Source: Candidatus Onthousia excrementipullorum (GTDB lineage Bacteria; Bacillota_I; Bacilli_A; RF39; UBA660). From it: a DNA stretch of 34,816 nucleotides. The notes under the pieces are model-generated. The model saw nothing but the letters and a program-made list of their open reading frames with translations. It had not been told where the DNA came from and did not search any database. This document shows positions 3,449 through 22,988 of this stretch, one piece after another. Position 1 is the first letter of the stretch; the number at the start of each line of letters is the position of its first letter. Location: contig DVHC01000025.1 of assembly GCA_018712385.1 (NCBI GenBank), positions 1 to 34,816 on the forward strand, written 5' to 3'. Position numbers and translations under genes: made by a program.

Positions 3449-4363
3449 TTAGTTGTTTATCCACAAGTGTTGTGGATAAAGTCCTTCGTCAGTTAGTTTT
3501 CTTAAAGCTTTTACCACAGTTTCTTTATCTTCTTTATAAGTCATACCATACCAAGTAGAAGTTGTATTTATAACATCTATAGTCTTAATGTTCTTCCTAA
3601 GGCAAGTATCTAAAACATCAGGTATCTGGAATTCATAATCATCAAGATTTTTTTGATGAAGTGATAAGAATAAATATAATTCATCACTTAGAATATCAAA
3701 GATATCAGGTGAAAATAGTAATAGGTTCATACATACTAGAGTGTCTTCATCTATTTCTTTACCATTACTACTGTATAAAGGAGCGGCAATTATTTTATTT
3801 CTTTTAGGTGCTACTTTAGACTCAGTTATCCTTAATAATTTATTATCTTCTACTTCCATAATACCTCTTTTAGATGTTCCATTAGGACTTAGAGTATTAC
3901 CAACCTTATATCCTACAATACCATAGTGGTTATATATAATATCATCTAGATATTTACTTGCTTTTAAAAAGGCATCTTTACCATAGTAATCATCAGCATT
4001 TATGACTGCGAATGGTTCATTAATTTTATCTTTAGCACAAAGGATAGCATAGGCAGTACCTAGAGGTTTAATTCTTTTCTTTAATAAGGCTTTAAATCTG
4101 GTTGGTATATAATCATCATTTTGAAAAGCATATTCTACTTTAATATAAGGTTCTATTCTTTTTCCTATAGTTTCTTTAAATTTTTCATAAAAATCTTCTT
4201 TAACTATAAAAACAACTTTAGTAAAGCCTGCTTCAATAGCATCATAGATTGAATAGTCTATGATGAACTCTCCATTAGGTCCTACTTTTTCTATTTGTTT
4301 TAATCCTCCAAATCTACTACCAAGGCCTGCTGCCATAATTAATAATGTTTTATCTTTCTTCAT
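3449..4363 (-). CDS. Sugar-phosphate nucleotidyltransferase, paralogue 2
   Basis: A GT-A fold nucleotidyltransferase of the NDP-sugar pyrophosphorylase type, expected to join a nucleoside triphosphate to a sugar 1-phosphate. The signature LLIMAAGLGSRFGGLKQIE with PNGE close behind sits at the N terminus, and VINADDYYG carries the metal-binding aspartates. I chose the internal ATG (304 residues): AAGGAG lies 6 bases before it, while the upstream ATG overlaps that Shine-Dalgarno sequence. The gene overlaps the end of its paralogue by 14 bp, implying translational coupling. The two proteins align over their whole length, so they arose by tandem duplication. The nucleotide and sugar specificity cannot be told. 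Related to glucose-1-phosphate uridylyl- and thymidylyltransferases, but this subfamily is usually annotated only as nucleotidyltransferase. Confidence 0.85.
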   Translation of the reverse strand: MKKDKTLLIMAAGLGSRFGGLKQIEKVGPNGEFIIDYSIYDAIEAGFTKVVFIVKEDFYEKFKETIGKRIEPYIKVEYAFQNDDYIPTRFKALLKKRIKPLGTAYAILCAKDKINEPFAVINADDYYGKDAFLKASKYLDDIIYNHYGIVGYKVGNTLSPNGTSKRGIMEVEDNKLLRITESKVAPKRNKIIAAPLYSSNGKEIDEDTLVCMNLLLFSPDIFDILSDELYLFLSLHQKNLDDYEFQIPDVLDTCLRKNIKTIDVINTTSTWYGMTYKEDKETVVKALRKLTDEGLYPQHLWINN

Positions 4364-5279
4364 AATTCTCTCCTTCATATAAGTTATTATTATATATTTT
4401 ATCTTTAATCATATCATTTATAGCATTTACTACTAACTCTTTATCTTCTTTATAAGTTACTCCATACCACTTAGCATGAGTTTCTATGACATCTACTGTT
4501 ACTCTATTTTCTTTTAATAGTTCATTTAGGACTATTGGTATTAAGAACTCACAACTATCTAGGTTATCTCTATTATCTTCTAAAAAGATAGGTAGTTTTT
4601 CTTCTAGGATGTTAAAAAGGCTAGGAGTAAATAGTAACATATTCATAGAACAGATAGTATCTTTTTCTACTTCAAAAGGACTACTACCATCTAGGGGTGA
4701 TACTTTTACTAAACTACCATCTAACTCAGTACTACTTTCAATTATCGTAATTAGTTCATTATTATCATTTACTTTACAGACACCTCGTTTAGCGGCTCCA
4801 TTTTCGGTTAAGGTATTACCAAGACGATAAGCGATTAAGCCATAATGATTATCTTTAATTTTAGATAGATAATCACTTGCTTTCATATAAGCATCTCTTC
4901 CATAAAAGTCATCTGAGTTAATAATGGCGAATGGTTCCTTTATTTTATCTTTAGCACAGAGTATGGCATGTGCAGTACCAAGTGGCTTTTTCCTTGTCTT
5001 TAATAGTTCTTGATACTTTTTAGGTATATTATCATTATTTTGAAAAACATACTCTACTTTTATATGAGGTTCTACTCTTTTACCAATAGTCTCTTTAAAA
5101 ATATCATAGTTTTCTTCTTTTATAATAAAGACTACCTTATTAAAACCTGCCCTAATCGCATCATAGATAGAATAATCTATAATAAATTCATTATTAGGTC
5201 CAACTGGTTCAATTTGTTTTAGTCCTCCAAATCTACTACCCATTCCGGCAGCCATGATTAATAATGTTTTATCTTTCAT
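4350..5279 (-). CDS. Sugar-phosphate nucleotidyltransferase, paralogue 1
   Basis: Tandem paralogue of the next gene in the operon (309 residues). It shows the same N-terminal signature, LLIMAAGMGSRFGGLKQIE, followed by PNNEFIIDYSIYDAI, and the metal site IINSDDFYG. The C-terminal part ends with THAKWYGVTYKEDKE, nearly the same as in the partner. Start at ATG with AGGAGG upstream. Differences cluster in the middle (residues about 165-200), where sugar specificity usually lies, so the two may handle different substrates or form a heteromer; that is inference. It lies 14 bp after the AAA ATPase gene. Cytoplasmic, probably supplying activated sugars for envelope glycans. Confidence 0.85.
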   Translation of the reverse strand: MKDKTLLIMAAGMGSRFGGLKQIEPVGPNNEFIIDYSIYDAIRAGFNKVVFIIKEENYDIFKETIGKRVEPHIKVEYVFQNNDNIPKKYQELLKTRKKPLGTAHAILCAKDKIKEPFAIINSDDFYGRDAYMKASDYLSKIKDNHYGLIAYRLGNTLTENGAAKRGVCKVNDNNELITIIESSTELDGSLVKVSPLDGSSPFEVEKDTICSMNMLLFTPSLFNILEEKLPIFLEDNRDNLDSCEFLIPIVLNELLKENRVTVDVIETHAKWYGVTYKEDKELVVNAINDMIKDKIYNNNLYEGENYEER

Positions 5280-5293
5280 ATGTCCTCCTAATA

Positions 5294-6628
5294 TTATTTT
5301 TCTTTTAAAAATCTTTTTAACATAAATGTTAAGAAATATGGAAATGTATAAAATTTACCATTAAAGCCGATATTTTTATTACATAGTTTTATCCCATATT
5401 TTATATCTTTATATTTATCACTTTCTATTAATTTATTAAGTGATAAAGTCTCATTGTCACTTGCTTTCACTTCAATAGGTATAAGAGAGTCTTTATCTCT
5501 AATAAAGAAGTCCATTTCAATTGTCCCTTTTTCATTTTTATAAAAGTATAGGGAATAACCTTCCTTAACTAACATTTCTCCTACTATATTTTCATAGAGA
5601 GCACCTTTGTAGGTATTAAAGTTTTTATTAACTCTTAAATCTTCTCCTGCTTCATCATCTAGGGATGCAACTAAAAGTCCTGTATCTTTAAAATACAATC
5701 TATAATTATCAGGATTATAATTACCTTTTAGTGGTAAAAAAGGCTGTTCCATACAATAACTTATATTTATAATACCAGCATTAGATAGCCAATCTATAAC
5801 ACCAACATATTCTCTATTTCTAGCATTATGTTCTATTTTAGATATTTGGAATTTCTTATTTTCATTTCCTAAAAAGACTGGTATTTTTCTATAGACATTT
5901 AAAATCTTTCCTTTATCTAATCCACCTGCATATTTAGTAATATCTTCTTCATAATCTAAAAGTATTTGTCGCTGCATATTTAGAATACCTGAGTAATTCT
6001 TTTGTTCAACAAATCTATTTACAATGGCAGGCATCCCTCCTACTATCATATATTCTTTGAAGTTTTCTAACATAACGTCATACATTAACTTTGGTAGAGG
6101 TTTACAGTTTAACATATAGAAGTACATTTCTTCTATTTGATTTTCTTTATATCCTTTAGCCCATAAGAACTCTTCAAAATCCATAGAATTCATTTCATAA
6201 TCTTGTTTATTTCCAACACTATTAGATTCTATTTCTTGGTAATTAATACCCATTAGGGAACCTGAACAAATAACATCATATCTACCATCAATATTAAATG
6301 ATTTTAGCGAAGTAGTTGCATTAATACAGTCTTGGATTTCATCAAAAAATATCAATGTTTTACCAGGGGTAAAGTTAAAGTTAGGATTAATTAAAGATAT
6401 ATTTCTTATTATGGTATCTACATCAAAACCATCATCAAAGATATTTTTGTATTGTTTTTGTAAAACAAAATTAATCTCAACTACATTTTCATAATTATTT
6501 TTACCAAAGTTTTCTATTGATTCTGTTTTCCCTATTTGTCTTGCTCCTTTAACAATTAAAGGAAGTCTATTCTTATCATTTTTCCAGTCTATTAAATATT
6601 TATCAATTTTTCTTGTTAATCTTGGCAT
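5294..6628 (-). CDS. AAA ATPase with DUF4143 domain (COG1373 type)
   Basis: This 444-residue protein has an AAA_14-type ATPase domain at the N terminus: Walker A GARQIGKT at 28-35 and Walker B LIFFDEIQD at 92-100. A C-terminal DUF4143 region contains E-M-D-F and then PIEVKAS near residues 370-390. That arrangement resembles a PD-(D/E)xK nuclease-like core. Start at ATG with GAGGGTGAT upstream. Proteins of this family are common, often multicopy and mobile in gut bacteria and archaea; their function is unknown, with suggested links to DNA or to toxin-like roles. The gene has its own extended -10 promoter and three evenly spaced direct repeats in front, so it is probably regulated apart from the pcrA operon. 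A second, distant relative lies at 21708-22910. Confidence 0.85.
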   Translation of the reverse strand: MPRLTRKIDKYLIDWKNDKNRLPLIVKGARQIGKTESIENFGKNNYENVVEINFVLQKQYKNIFDDGFDVDTIIRNISLINPNFNFTPGKTLIFFDEIQDCINATTSLKSFNIDGRYDVICSGSLMGINYQEIESNSVGNKQDYEMNSMDFEEFLWAKGYKENQIEEMYFYMLNCKPLPKLMYDVMLENFKEYMIVGGMPAIVNRFVEQKNYSGILNMQRQILLDYEEDITKYAGGLDKGKILNVYRKIPVFLGNENKKFQISKIEHNARNREYVGVIDWLSNAGIINISYCMEQPFLPLKGNYNPDNYRLYFKDTGLLVASLDDEAGEDLRVNKNFNTYKGALYENIVGEMLVKEGYSLYFYKNEKGTIEMDFFIRDKDSLIPIEVKASDNETLSLNKLIESDKYKDIKYGIKLCNKNIGFNGKFYTFPYFLTFMLKRFLKEK

Positions 6629-6647: not shown

Positions 6648-6656
6648 ATTATATCA
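6648..6656 (-). promoter_or_regulatory. Extended -10 promoter of the AAA ATPase gene
   Basis: Read on the minus strand this is TGATATAAT, a perfect TG-N-TATAAT extended -10. It lies about 20 bp before the ATPase start codon. No clear -35 is seen. The TG part overlaps the first of three 32-bp-spaced repeats, so a protein bound there would compete with RNA polymerase. Confidence 0.6.
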
Positions 6657-6729
6657 CAAAATTCCTGTGTTTATATATGTTATTTTCACAAAATTCCGGC
6701 ACTTTTCAGATTAATTTTCACATTTTTCC
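6654..6729. repeat. Three direct repeats with exact 32-bp spacing, likely operators
   Basis: The motif TCACAAAATTCC (plus-strand reading) occurs at 6654-6665 and 6686-6697, and a variant TCACATTTTTCC at 6718-6729. The starts are exactly 32 bp apart, close to three helical turns, so all three face the same side of the DNA. They fill the space between the 96-residue gene and the ATPase gene, and the first overlaps the extended -10 box. The layout suggests cooperative binding of a regulator, perhaps the ATPase itself. The repeats are seen; their role is inference. Confidence 0.65.
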
Positions 6730-21679: not shown

Positions 21680-21711
21680 CTGTGTTTTAGGTCATCTTTT
21701 AATATTTTTAA
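21660..21711. terminator. Very long bidirectional terminator between convergent genes
   Basis: A 21-bp perfect stem with arms at 21660-21680 and 21691-21711 and a 10-base loop. It is flanked by A and T runs on both sides and so works on both strands. The stop codons of both convergent genes lie in its arms. Confidence 0.88.
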
Positions 21712-22910
21712 AACTCATCATTCATTAGAAAATCAAAGATATTTAGATGTTTTATACCATCCTTAGAATAATCTTTTTTGTCTAAAGAAATAATATATTT
21801 TTCATTATCATCATCTATACAGTTAAAAGCTCCAAATTCTCTTTTTATCGTTTCTTCTTTATCTAATTTATAACAAACTTGTATGTATTTAATTTTATTG
21901 TTTTTTACAACGATAAAGTCAATTTCGCCTTTTTTAGTCTTACCTATATAAACTTTATAATTCTTACCTATTAAATCATTATAGACAATGTTTTCTAAAG
22001 CGATAGAATAGTTTAAATCTGTTCCTGTTGTTTTAATTTGTTTAATTCCTAAATCAGTAGAATAATATTTATTTAAAGTTTTTAAAATAGTCTTACCATG
22101 AATATCATATCTATTTACTTTATTCATAATAAATGTTGAAGTAAAGGCTTCTAGATAATTATAAAGAGTATCGTTTGCAATACTATGGTGTTCTTGTTTT
22201 AAAAAATTAATGACATGGTCTCTTGAGAATTCTTTTCCTTCTGTATCTAGTATATATTGTAATAATTTGTTAAATGATGAAACATCTTTTATATTTAGTC
22301 TTTCTACAATATCTTTTAGAATAATAGAGTCATAAACACTTTCTAAATAGTTAATTTTATCATTATCATTTTTAAATAAAAATCTTTGTGGCAGGCTACC
22401 CCATTTGAAAATATCTAATAAAAGTTCTTCATATTTGTCTTTTTTAGTATTAGTTAGTTCTACTACTTCTTTAAATGACAAAGGATTAATTTTAAAACTA
22501 ACATATCTTCCAGAAAGGTCTGTTGATAATTCTAATAAAGTCATTCTACTGTTTGAACCAGTTATAAATATACTATATTTATCTGTAATTCTAAGAGAAT
22601 TAATGCCTTTTTCAAAATCTTCTACTTTTTGTATTTCATCTAAAAATACATAATACTTATTATTATTTACTGTTAATGATTCTATATAATTGTATAAATC
22701 CTTAGCTGTTTTAATAAAATCATATTTTAAAGATTCAAAGTTTATATAGATTATATTTTCTTCATTAACACCCTTATTTTTTATCTCATCTATTATTTGA
22801 GTTAAAATAACAGATTTACCACTTCTTCGCATACCATAAATTATTTTAATTAAGGAAGTAATATCATAAAAGTCTCTTATTTTAGATAGATATTTTTCTC
22901 TTATAAGCAT
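21708..22910 (-). CDS. AAA ATPase with DUF4143 domain, second copy
   Basis: A 400-residue ATPase of the same broad family as the gene at 5294-6628 but only distantly similar. Walker A is GMRRSGKS at 26-33 and Walker B is VFLDEIQKV at 88-96. ITGSNSRMTLLELS is a sensor-like segment. The C-terminal DUF4143 part ends with GEIDFIVVKNNKIKYIQVCY, the E-x-D plus distal strand of a nuclease-like fold; the usual Lys of E-V-K is replaced here by Q-V-C-Y. ATG start with AGGTGATG upstream and a perfect promoter. It is a single-gene unit between hairpins and unrelated in role to its cell-wall neighbours, so horizontal arrival is plausible. Confidence 0.85.
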   Translation of the reverse strand: MLIREKYLSKIRDFYDITSLIKIIYGMRRSGKSVILTQIIDEIKNKGVNEENIIYINFESLKYDFIKTAKDLYNYIESLTVNNNKYYVFLDEIQKVEDFEKGINSLRITDKYSIFITGSNSRMTLLELSTDLSGRYVSFKINPLSFKEVVELTNTKKDKYEELLLDIFKWGSLPQRFLFKNDNDKINYLESVYDSIILKDIVERLNIKDVSSFNKLLQYILDTEGKEFSRDHVINFLKQEHHSIANDTLYNYLEAFTSTFIMNKVNRYDIHGKTILKTLNKYYSTDLGIKQIKTTGTDLNYSIALENIVYNDLIGKNYKVYIGKTKKGEIDFIVVKNNKIKYIQVCYKLDKEETIKREFGAFNCIDDDNEKYIISLDKKDYSKDGIKHLNIFDFLMNDEF

Positions 22911-22928: not shown

Positions 22929-22957
22929 ATTATAATATAGATTTATATTTTTGTAAA
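22929..22957 (-). promoter_or_regulatory. Sigma-A promoter of the second AAA ATPase gene
   Basis: Minus strand: TTTACA, exactly 17 bp, TATAAT. The -35 box overlaps the base of the hairpin that ends the preceding operon. Confidence 0.8.
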
Positions 22958-22988
22958 GTTATTCCATTGTACTGGAATAACTTTTTTT
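22955..22988 (-). terminator. Hairpin ending the flippase-FemX-carboxypeptidase operon
   Basis: AAAGTTATTCCA pairs with TGGAATAACTTT over a six-base loop (12-bp perfect stem). The minus-strand T tract is short, the plus-strand one longer. It lies directly after the S66 peptidase stop codon. Confidence 0.7.

What the first reader, a model, noticed from the sequence alone, without database searches (positions are those of the whole stretch)
6654..6729. Three operators at exact 32-bp spacing before the AAA/DUF4143 gene
Identical or near-identical 12-bp motifs start at 6654, 6686 and 6718, three helical turns apart, and the first overlaps the -10 box. Such an array suggests a cooperative repressor, perhaps the ATPase acting on its own promoter. 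Function of this very common protein family is unknown, so an operator would be a real lead.
Basis: partly seen in the sequence, partly recalled or inferred. Interest (0 to 1): 0.6.

Follow-up and report, generated by a model that had tools for sequence, protein, structure and literature searches.

The report
Self-operator arrays of DUF4143 ATPase genes
Three evenly spaced DNA sites in front of this ATPase gene are real. The same arrangement, with a different site sequence for each branch of the protein family, precedes its relatives across several bacterial phyla. This suggests that each ATPase controls its own promoter, and gives a handle on a very common suspected anti-phage protein of unknown function.

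Summary
GGAATTTTGTGA (twice) and GGAAAAATGTGA lie exactly 32 bp apart upstream of the DUF4143 ATPase gene. The proximal copy abuts the -10 box and supplies its extended -10 TGn. On its own the window array is only modestly unlikely (p about 0.03 against shuffles). Comparison makes it solid. Of 79 upstream regions (the window plus 78 relatives, 72-99% identical, Bacilli to Endomicrobia), 78 carry 2-4 copies, spaced 32-33 bp in 158 of 162 intervals. In 75 of 78 the last copy abuts a TANNNT box. Across 43 non-redundant DUF4143 genes from five phyla and phages, 26 have direct repeats at 32-33 bp, against 7 of 290 neighbouring genes. The spacing is shared but the site sequence differs by ATPase clade and tracks protein divergence (Mantel r 0.42, p 0.0002). 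Most clades tested without repeats carry promoter palindromes instead. In 34 whole genomes the array occurs only at the ATPase promoter. The protein models as a STAND-like ATPase with a winged helix and a PD-(D/E)XK-like domain. Best explanation: cooperative autorepression by the ATPase (binding not shown). PADLOC calls the family PDC-S01, an unvalidated defence candidate. Arrays without the ATPase occur in relatives and phages.

The parts
5294..6628 (-). DUF4143 AAA ATPase gene (444 aa): AAA_14/STAND-like NTPase (1-~155), winged-helix region (~239-322), PD-(D/E)XK-like C-terminal domain (~337-444)
   Evidence: Pfam AAA_14 and DUF4143; PADLOC PDC-S01 E 9e-154; AlphaFold2 pLDDT 86.6; nearest solved folds 2qen and 2fna
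6654..6665 (-). Operator 1 GGAATTTTGTGA, abutting the -10 box; contains the TGn of an extended -10
   Evidence: sequence; conserved in 78 of 79 upstream regions
6686..6697 (-). Operator 2 GGAATTTTGTGA, 32 bp upstream of operator 1
6718..6729 (-). Operator 3 GGAAAAATGTGA (A-tract form), 32 bp upstream of operator 2
6648..6653 (-). -10 box TATAAT of the ATPase promoter (extended -10; no good -35 in this genus, TTGA/TTGC/TTCA-like -35 in 57 of 75 relatives)
22955..22984 (-). Palindrome AAAGTTATTCCAGTACAATGGAATAACTTT upstream of the window's second DUF4143 gene: the palindromic alternative seen in this other subfamily
   Evidence: (p 0.024)
21708..22910 (-). Second DUF4143 ATPase gene of the window (400 aa, 'GMRRSGKS' subgroup)

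Best explanation
The three sites are a self-operator of the ATPase. The winged helix of the DUF4143 protein binds each 12-bp site; sites three helical turns apart place successive protomers on the same face of the DNA, so that ATPase subunits can contact each other and bind cooperatively as a head-to-tail assembly. Occupancy of the proximal site, which forms the spacer and extended -10 of the promoter, shuts off transcription of the gene. Free ATPase thus sets its own level, and anything that removes it from the array (infection, nucleotide state, decoy sites) would derepress it. Shown: the array, its conservation, exclusive location, fixed 32-33 bp period, position at the promoter, clade-specific sequence tracking the protein, and a predicted DNA-binding domain. 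Inferred: that this protein is what binds, that binding represses, that it is cooperative, and any link to defence.
For: Array in 78 of 79 upstream regions, 70 with three or four copies, spacing 32 (115 intervals) or 33 (43) of 162; last copy directly followed by TANNNT in 75 of 78; shuffles 2 of 1580. Family-wide: 43 non-redundant DUF4143 upstreams, 29 with significant repeats, 25 of these at 32-33 bp, with one sharp peak in the lag spectrum; controls 7/290 versus 26/43, and at least one of those 7 controls (L089) is the ATPase's own array seen from the divergent gene. Different clades in one genus have different site sequences, while clade A has the same site from Bacilli to Clostridia and Endomicrobia; operator distance correlates with protein distance. 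Pattern found in 19 of 34 whole genomes, only at the ATPase promoter, and in 3 of 245 Clostridia-centred genomes. The model has a winged helix after a STAND-like ATPase. Clades without repeats mostly have significant palindromes there.
Against: No binding or expression data. Clade G (L175-type, 425 aa) and a few others show neither repeats nor a significant palindrome. Protein distance in the AAA domain correlates with operator distance almost as well as the winged helix does (r 0.37 against 0.42), so the recognition element is not pinned down. Two members have a 23-bp period (L003, L004). Arrays persist where the ATPase is missing, which plain autoregulation does not need. Activation instead of repression is not excluded, though the position of operator 1 favours repression.
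Confidence: 0.72

Rival explanations
1. A different regulator, encoded elsewhere, binds the array and controls the ATPase gene, for example a host defence-island repressor.
For: Binding by the ATPase was not tested. Separate repressors of defence genes exist (RptR, PMC12255303, abstract seen).
Against: The pattern occurs only at the ATPase promoter in 34 genomes and the 12-mer only there in the own genome. Each of several ATPase clades in one genus has its own site, the site follows the ATPase across phyla, and it correlates with ATPase divergence. A separate regulator would need one dedicated partner per clade, travelling without being adjacent.
Confidence: 0.12
2. The array is primarily the working site of the ATPase-nuclease rather than a regulatory operator: a loading, sensing or cleavage site (initiator-like), with promoter overlap secondary. 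Arrays without the ATPase would then be functional targets, protective decoys, or scars of cleavage.
For: Nearest domain architectures are STAND and Orc1/Cdc6-like ATPases; the C-terminal domain looks like a PD-(D/E)XK nuclease (invariant E346, D373, E386, K388). Eight of 21 array-bearing relatives lack a close ATPase. Arrays without ATPase occur in phage contigs, one upstream of a tRNA cluster. In G160 and G153 the array runs straight into ATPase fragments.
Against: The proximal site keeps fixed register with the -10 in 75 of 78 upstream regions, as expected for a promoter operator. Solo arrays were found by requiring intact sites, so retained sites are expected by ascertainment, and some genomes are incomplete.
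Confidence: 0.12
3. Chance repeats or a generic promoter feature of AT-rich genomes.
For: The window alone gives only p = 0.033, and loose matches to the 12-mer (up to 2 mismatches) in the window are near expectation (7 against 4.9).
Against: Conservation and family-wide spacing, zero hits for the reversed control pattern in 391 genomes, and clade-specific rather than generic sequence.
Confidence: 0.01

Closest known systems
MalT (STAND-family transcription factor) and its direct-repeat MalT boxes
   Same: STAND-type ATPase that acts at promoters through iterated direct repeats and multimerises (MalT as STAND: PMC4381067, abstract; box arrangement from general knowledge)
   Different: MalT is an activator with a LuxR-type HTH and a separate sensor domain, acting on other operons; here a winged helix and a nuclease-like domain, and the sites lie at the protein's own promoter
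DnaA boxes / archaeal Orc1-Cdc6 ORB elements, including autoregulation of dnaA
   Same: ATPase with an added DNA-binding domain on iterated sites, known autoregulation (general knowledge); Orc1/Cdc6 among the fold matches
   Different: No origin function is indicated; site sequence is specific to each ATPase clade and the period is fixed at 32-33 bp
PADLOC PDC-S01 (candidate single-gene anti-phage system, DUF4143/COG1373)
   Same: This protein scores E 9e-154 against a PDC-S01 model
   Different: Treated as an unvalidated candidate in PMC12988326; no operator was found described in the library searched
Archaeal ATPases 2qen (PABY2304) and 2fna (SSO1545)
   Same: Best structural matches, Z 16.1 and 15.1 over 262 residues
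   Different: They match residues 1-324 only; 13-16% sequence identity
Defence-island repressors such as RptR
   Same: Regulation of defence genes
   Different: RptR is a separate repressor (PMC12255303, abstract only); here the candidate effector itself is the proposed regulator

Membership tests
DUF4143 (PF13635) / AAA_14 ATPases | Pfam domain scores over the curated cut-offs | tested here: met
   DUF4143 101.7 bits (cut-off 28.1), AAA_14 80.9 bits (27)
PADLOC PDC-S01 | PADLOC model match over nearly the whole protein | tested here: met
   E 9.1e-154, residues 4-440
PDC-S01 as a true defence system | Protection against phage | not testable with these tools
   Described as awaiting validation in PMC12988326
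STAND / archaeal-ATPase-like NTPases | NTPase fold followed by helical and winged-helix domains | tested here: met
   2qen Z 16.1, 2fna Z 15.1, CED-4 about 14; Walker A GARQIGKT in the sequence. Fold level only
PD-(D/E)XK nucleases | alpha-beta-beta-beta-alpha-beta core with D...ExK residues | tested here: inconclusive
   D373, E386 and K388 invariant; matches to McrC, Can2, DdmD and Hjc at Z 4-7 only, model pLDDT 66
Autoregulatory operator array | Conserved sites at the gene's own promoter, in helical register | tested here: met
Autoregulatory operator array | Binding of the gene product and change of transcription | not testable with these tools
   needs gel shift or footprint and a reporter assay

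The most novel reading that the evidence does not exclude
DUF4143/PDC-S01 ATPases are a very large family of self-recognising ATPase-nucleases. Each clade reads a private array of 12-20 bp sites at a universal 32-33 bp period, and the array is not only an operator but the element through which the protein senses or acts on DNA. Arrays without the ATPase in bacteria and phages would then be decoys, antidotes or targets in a conflict between ATPase-bearing elements.
Probability: 0.15. Interest if true: 0.9.

Novelty: new variant of a known kind. Interest (0 to 1): 0.72.

Why it matters
PDC-S01 is reported as the fourth most common defence candidate in prokaryotes and has no known mechanism (PMC12988326). 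A family-wide, clade-specific DNA site gives a concrete biochemical handle: a predicted ligand for each protein, an expected stoichiometry (3-4 protomers at three helical turns), and a simple reporter. It also predicts the site of an uncharacterised member from its upstream sequence, and offers natural pairs of protein clade and site sequence for working out the recognition code of the winged helix.

Tried and rejected
CRISPR-like array: rejected, sites are 12-20 bp and only 2-4 copies are at fixed promoter register. Generic promoter feature: rejected by controls. Global regulon: rejected by single-location scans. No sequence match in solved structures. NCBIfam gave nothing. Literature: DUF4143 and COG1373 searches gave only incidental mentions. 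Degenerate -10 boxes at solo arrays looked like a pattern, but the numbers are too small and the ascertainment biased, so no claim is made. Archaeal members were not examined.

Full report
OBSERVATION. Read on the gene strand, the 100 bp before the ATPase gene (5294-6628, minus) run: GGAAAAATGTGA (6729-6718), 20 bp, GGAATTTTGTGA (6697-6686), 20 bp, GGAATTTTGTGA (6665-6654), then TATAAT (6653-6648) and a ribosome-binding site. The period is exactly 32 bp. GGAAWWWTGTGA occurs three times in the window, all here, and the exact 12-mer occurs twice in the 1.5-Mb genome, both here. The proximal site abuts the -10 rather than overlapping it, and provides the TGn of an extended -10. A blind repeat test on this one promoter gives p = 0.033, so by itself it would be a weak finding.

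CLOSE RELATIVES. One scan of genome contigs returned 80 loci encoding homologues of 72-99% identity, from Bacilli, Clostridia and Endomicrobia-type records. Of 79 usable upstream regions (78 relatives plus the window), 78 hold two or more sites; 56 hold three and 14 hold four. Intervals are 32 bp (115) or 33 bp (43) of 162. In 75 of 78 the last site is directly followed by TANNNT. The middle of the site is TTT or AAA, so the divergent third copy in the window is a regular form. A TTGA/TTGC/TTCA-like -35 sits 16-19 bp upstream of the -10 in 57 of 75 relatives, so in most of them the site is the promoter spacer; the window's own genus lacks a good -35.

THE FAMILY. The own genome has 12 DUF4143 genes. 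Their upstream regions, those of their orthologues in the genus, and members from Bacteroidota, Fusobacteriota, Actinomycetota, Pseudomonadota, Clostridia and phages were examined. In 43 non-redundant upstream regions, 29 have significant direct repeats, 25 of these at 32-33 bp; the lag spectrum has one peak, at 33 (mean z 7.0) and 32 (1.9). At score 11 or more, 26 of 43 have repeats at 32-33 bp, against 7 of 290 neighbouring genes; at least one of the seven (L089) is the ATPase's own array seen from the divergent gene. The site differs by clade: TTGCAAAARTGTGAT, CTTGATTTCGTGTAAAA, AAGTCCTATAAAAAACGTG, GTGGGTGCAAAAAGGTGTAA, AAAGTCCCTCATAAAAGTGT, AATGCGATTTTGTGGTAAA and others. Most share an A/T tract followed by GTG, with a clade-specific 5' part. 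Site distance correlates with protein distance (Mantel r 0.42, p 0.0002 for the winged-helix region; r 0.37, p 0.0006 for the AAA domain). Of 11 non-window promoters chosen for a palindrome test because they were from the 'GIRRxGKS' subgroup or looked palindromic (or, for L175, lacked repeats), nine have significant palindromes, including the window's second DUF4143 gene at 22955-22984. That choice was made by eye, so this part is suggestive.

EXCLUSIVE LOCATION. In 34 whole genomes holding clade-A homologues the double-site pattern was found in 19, and by coordinates always at the ATPase promoter. In 391 relatives the reversed control pattern gave no hit. In 245 Clostridia-centred genomes only three had it; one of the two new ones was confirmed to encode the ATPase next to it (L280), the other was not recovered by the simple ORF test.

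PROTEIN. Pfam gives AAA_14 plus DUF4143. The AlphaFold2 model (pLDDT 86.6) matches archaeal STAND-like ATPases 2qen and 2fna (Z 16.1 and 15.1), then CED-4/NLR and Orc1/Cdc6. A winged-helix region precedes a C-terminal domain with invariant E346, D373, E386 and K388 that weakly matches PD-(D/E)XK nucleases (model pLDDT only 66). PADLOC names the family PDC-S01, described in PMC12988326 as the fourth most common defence across prokaryotes and not yet validated.

MECHANISM. The site follows the ATPase and not the host, is found only at its gene, and lies in helical register on the promoter. The simplest account is cooperative self-repression by the ATPase through its winged helix. Binding, repression and cooperativity are inferred.

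ARRAYS WITHOUT THE ATPASE. Of 21 relatives with the pattern, eight lack a homologue at E < 1e-120 (several genomes are incomplete drafts). In G027, G030, G032 and, with one exact site, G006, the array sits at the same place before the nucleotidyltransferase-ligase genes with the ATPase gone. In G160 and beside the intact copy in G153 the array runs into ATPase fragments, so these are deletion relics. Arrays also occur in phage contigs: with the ATPase in L169/L174 and without it in L167/L172, L170, L171 and L168/L173, the last lying upstream of a tRNA cluster. Whether solo arrays have a function is open; the search required intact sites and so favours well-preserved ones.

LIMITS. Sampling is weighted to gut bacteria and to plasmid and phage records; archaeal members were not tested; the 43 upstream regions are non-redundant but not phylogenetically independent; clade G shows neither repeats nor a palindrome.

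Noticed in passing
L173:8993-9826 and L168:330-370 (IMG/VR phage contigs): Two GGAAAAATGTGA sites 32 bp apart with no ATPase gene, directly upstream of a phage tRNA cluster (six tRNAs in L173).
   Followed up: partly
L125, L126, L128, L132 (G030, G032, G027, G006): Operator array kept at the syntenic site while the ATPase gene is deleted, the array being followed within about 40 bp by the next gene's ribosome-binding site.
   Followed up: partly
L127 (G041), L136 (G021), L139 (G208), L154 (G241): Arrays without any recognisable ATPase, near rpsB, a TasA-like gene, tuf and a glycosyltransferase gene.
   Followed up: partly
window 22955-22984: A 30-bp palindrome upstream of the window's second DUF4143 gene (21708-22910); other members of that subgroup have different palindromes there.
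   Followed up: partly
L131 (G003:C36): Array located between a 104-aa ORF and a tandem copy of the BspA-type leucine-rich-repeat gene, in a genome that also has the intact ATPase elsewhere.
   Followed up: no
L138 (G153:C9:11186-14561): A relic array with ATPase fragments about 1.9 kb upstream of an intact array and ATPase gene.
   Followed up: partly
L235 (Fusobacterium animalis plasmid pSB029A): DUF4143 gene followed by an overlapping RNA 2'-phosphotransferase gene; its operator repeats are themselves palindromic.
   Followed up: no
window 3449-5279: Two adjacent nucleotidyltransferase genes of 309 aa each, apparently a tandem duplication, between the ATPase and ligA.
   Followed up: no
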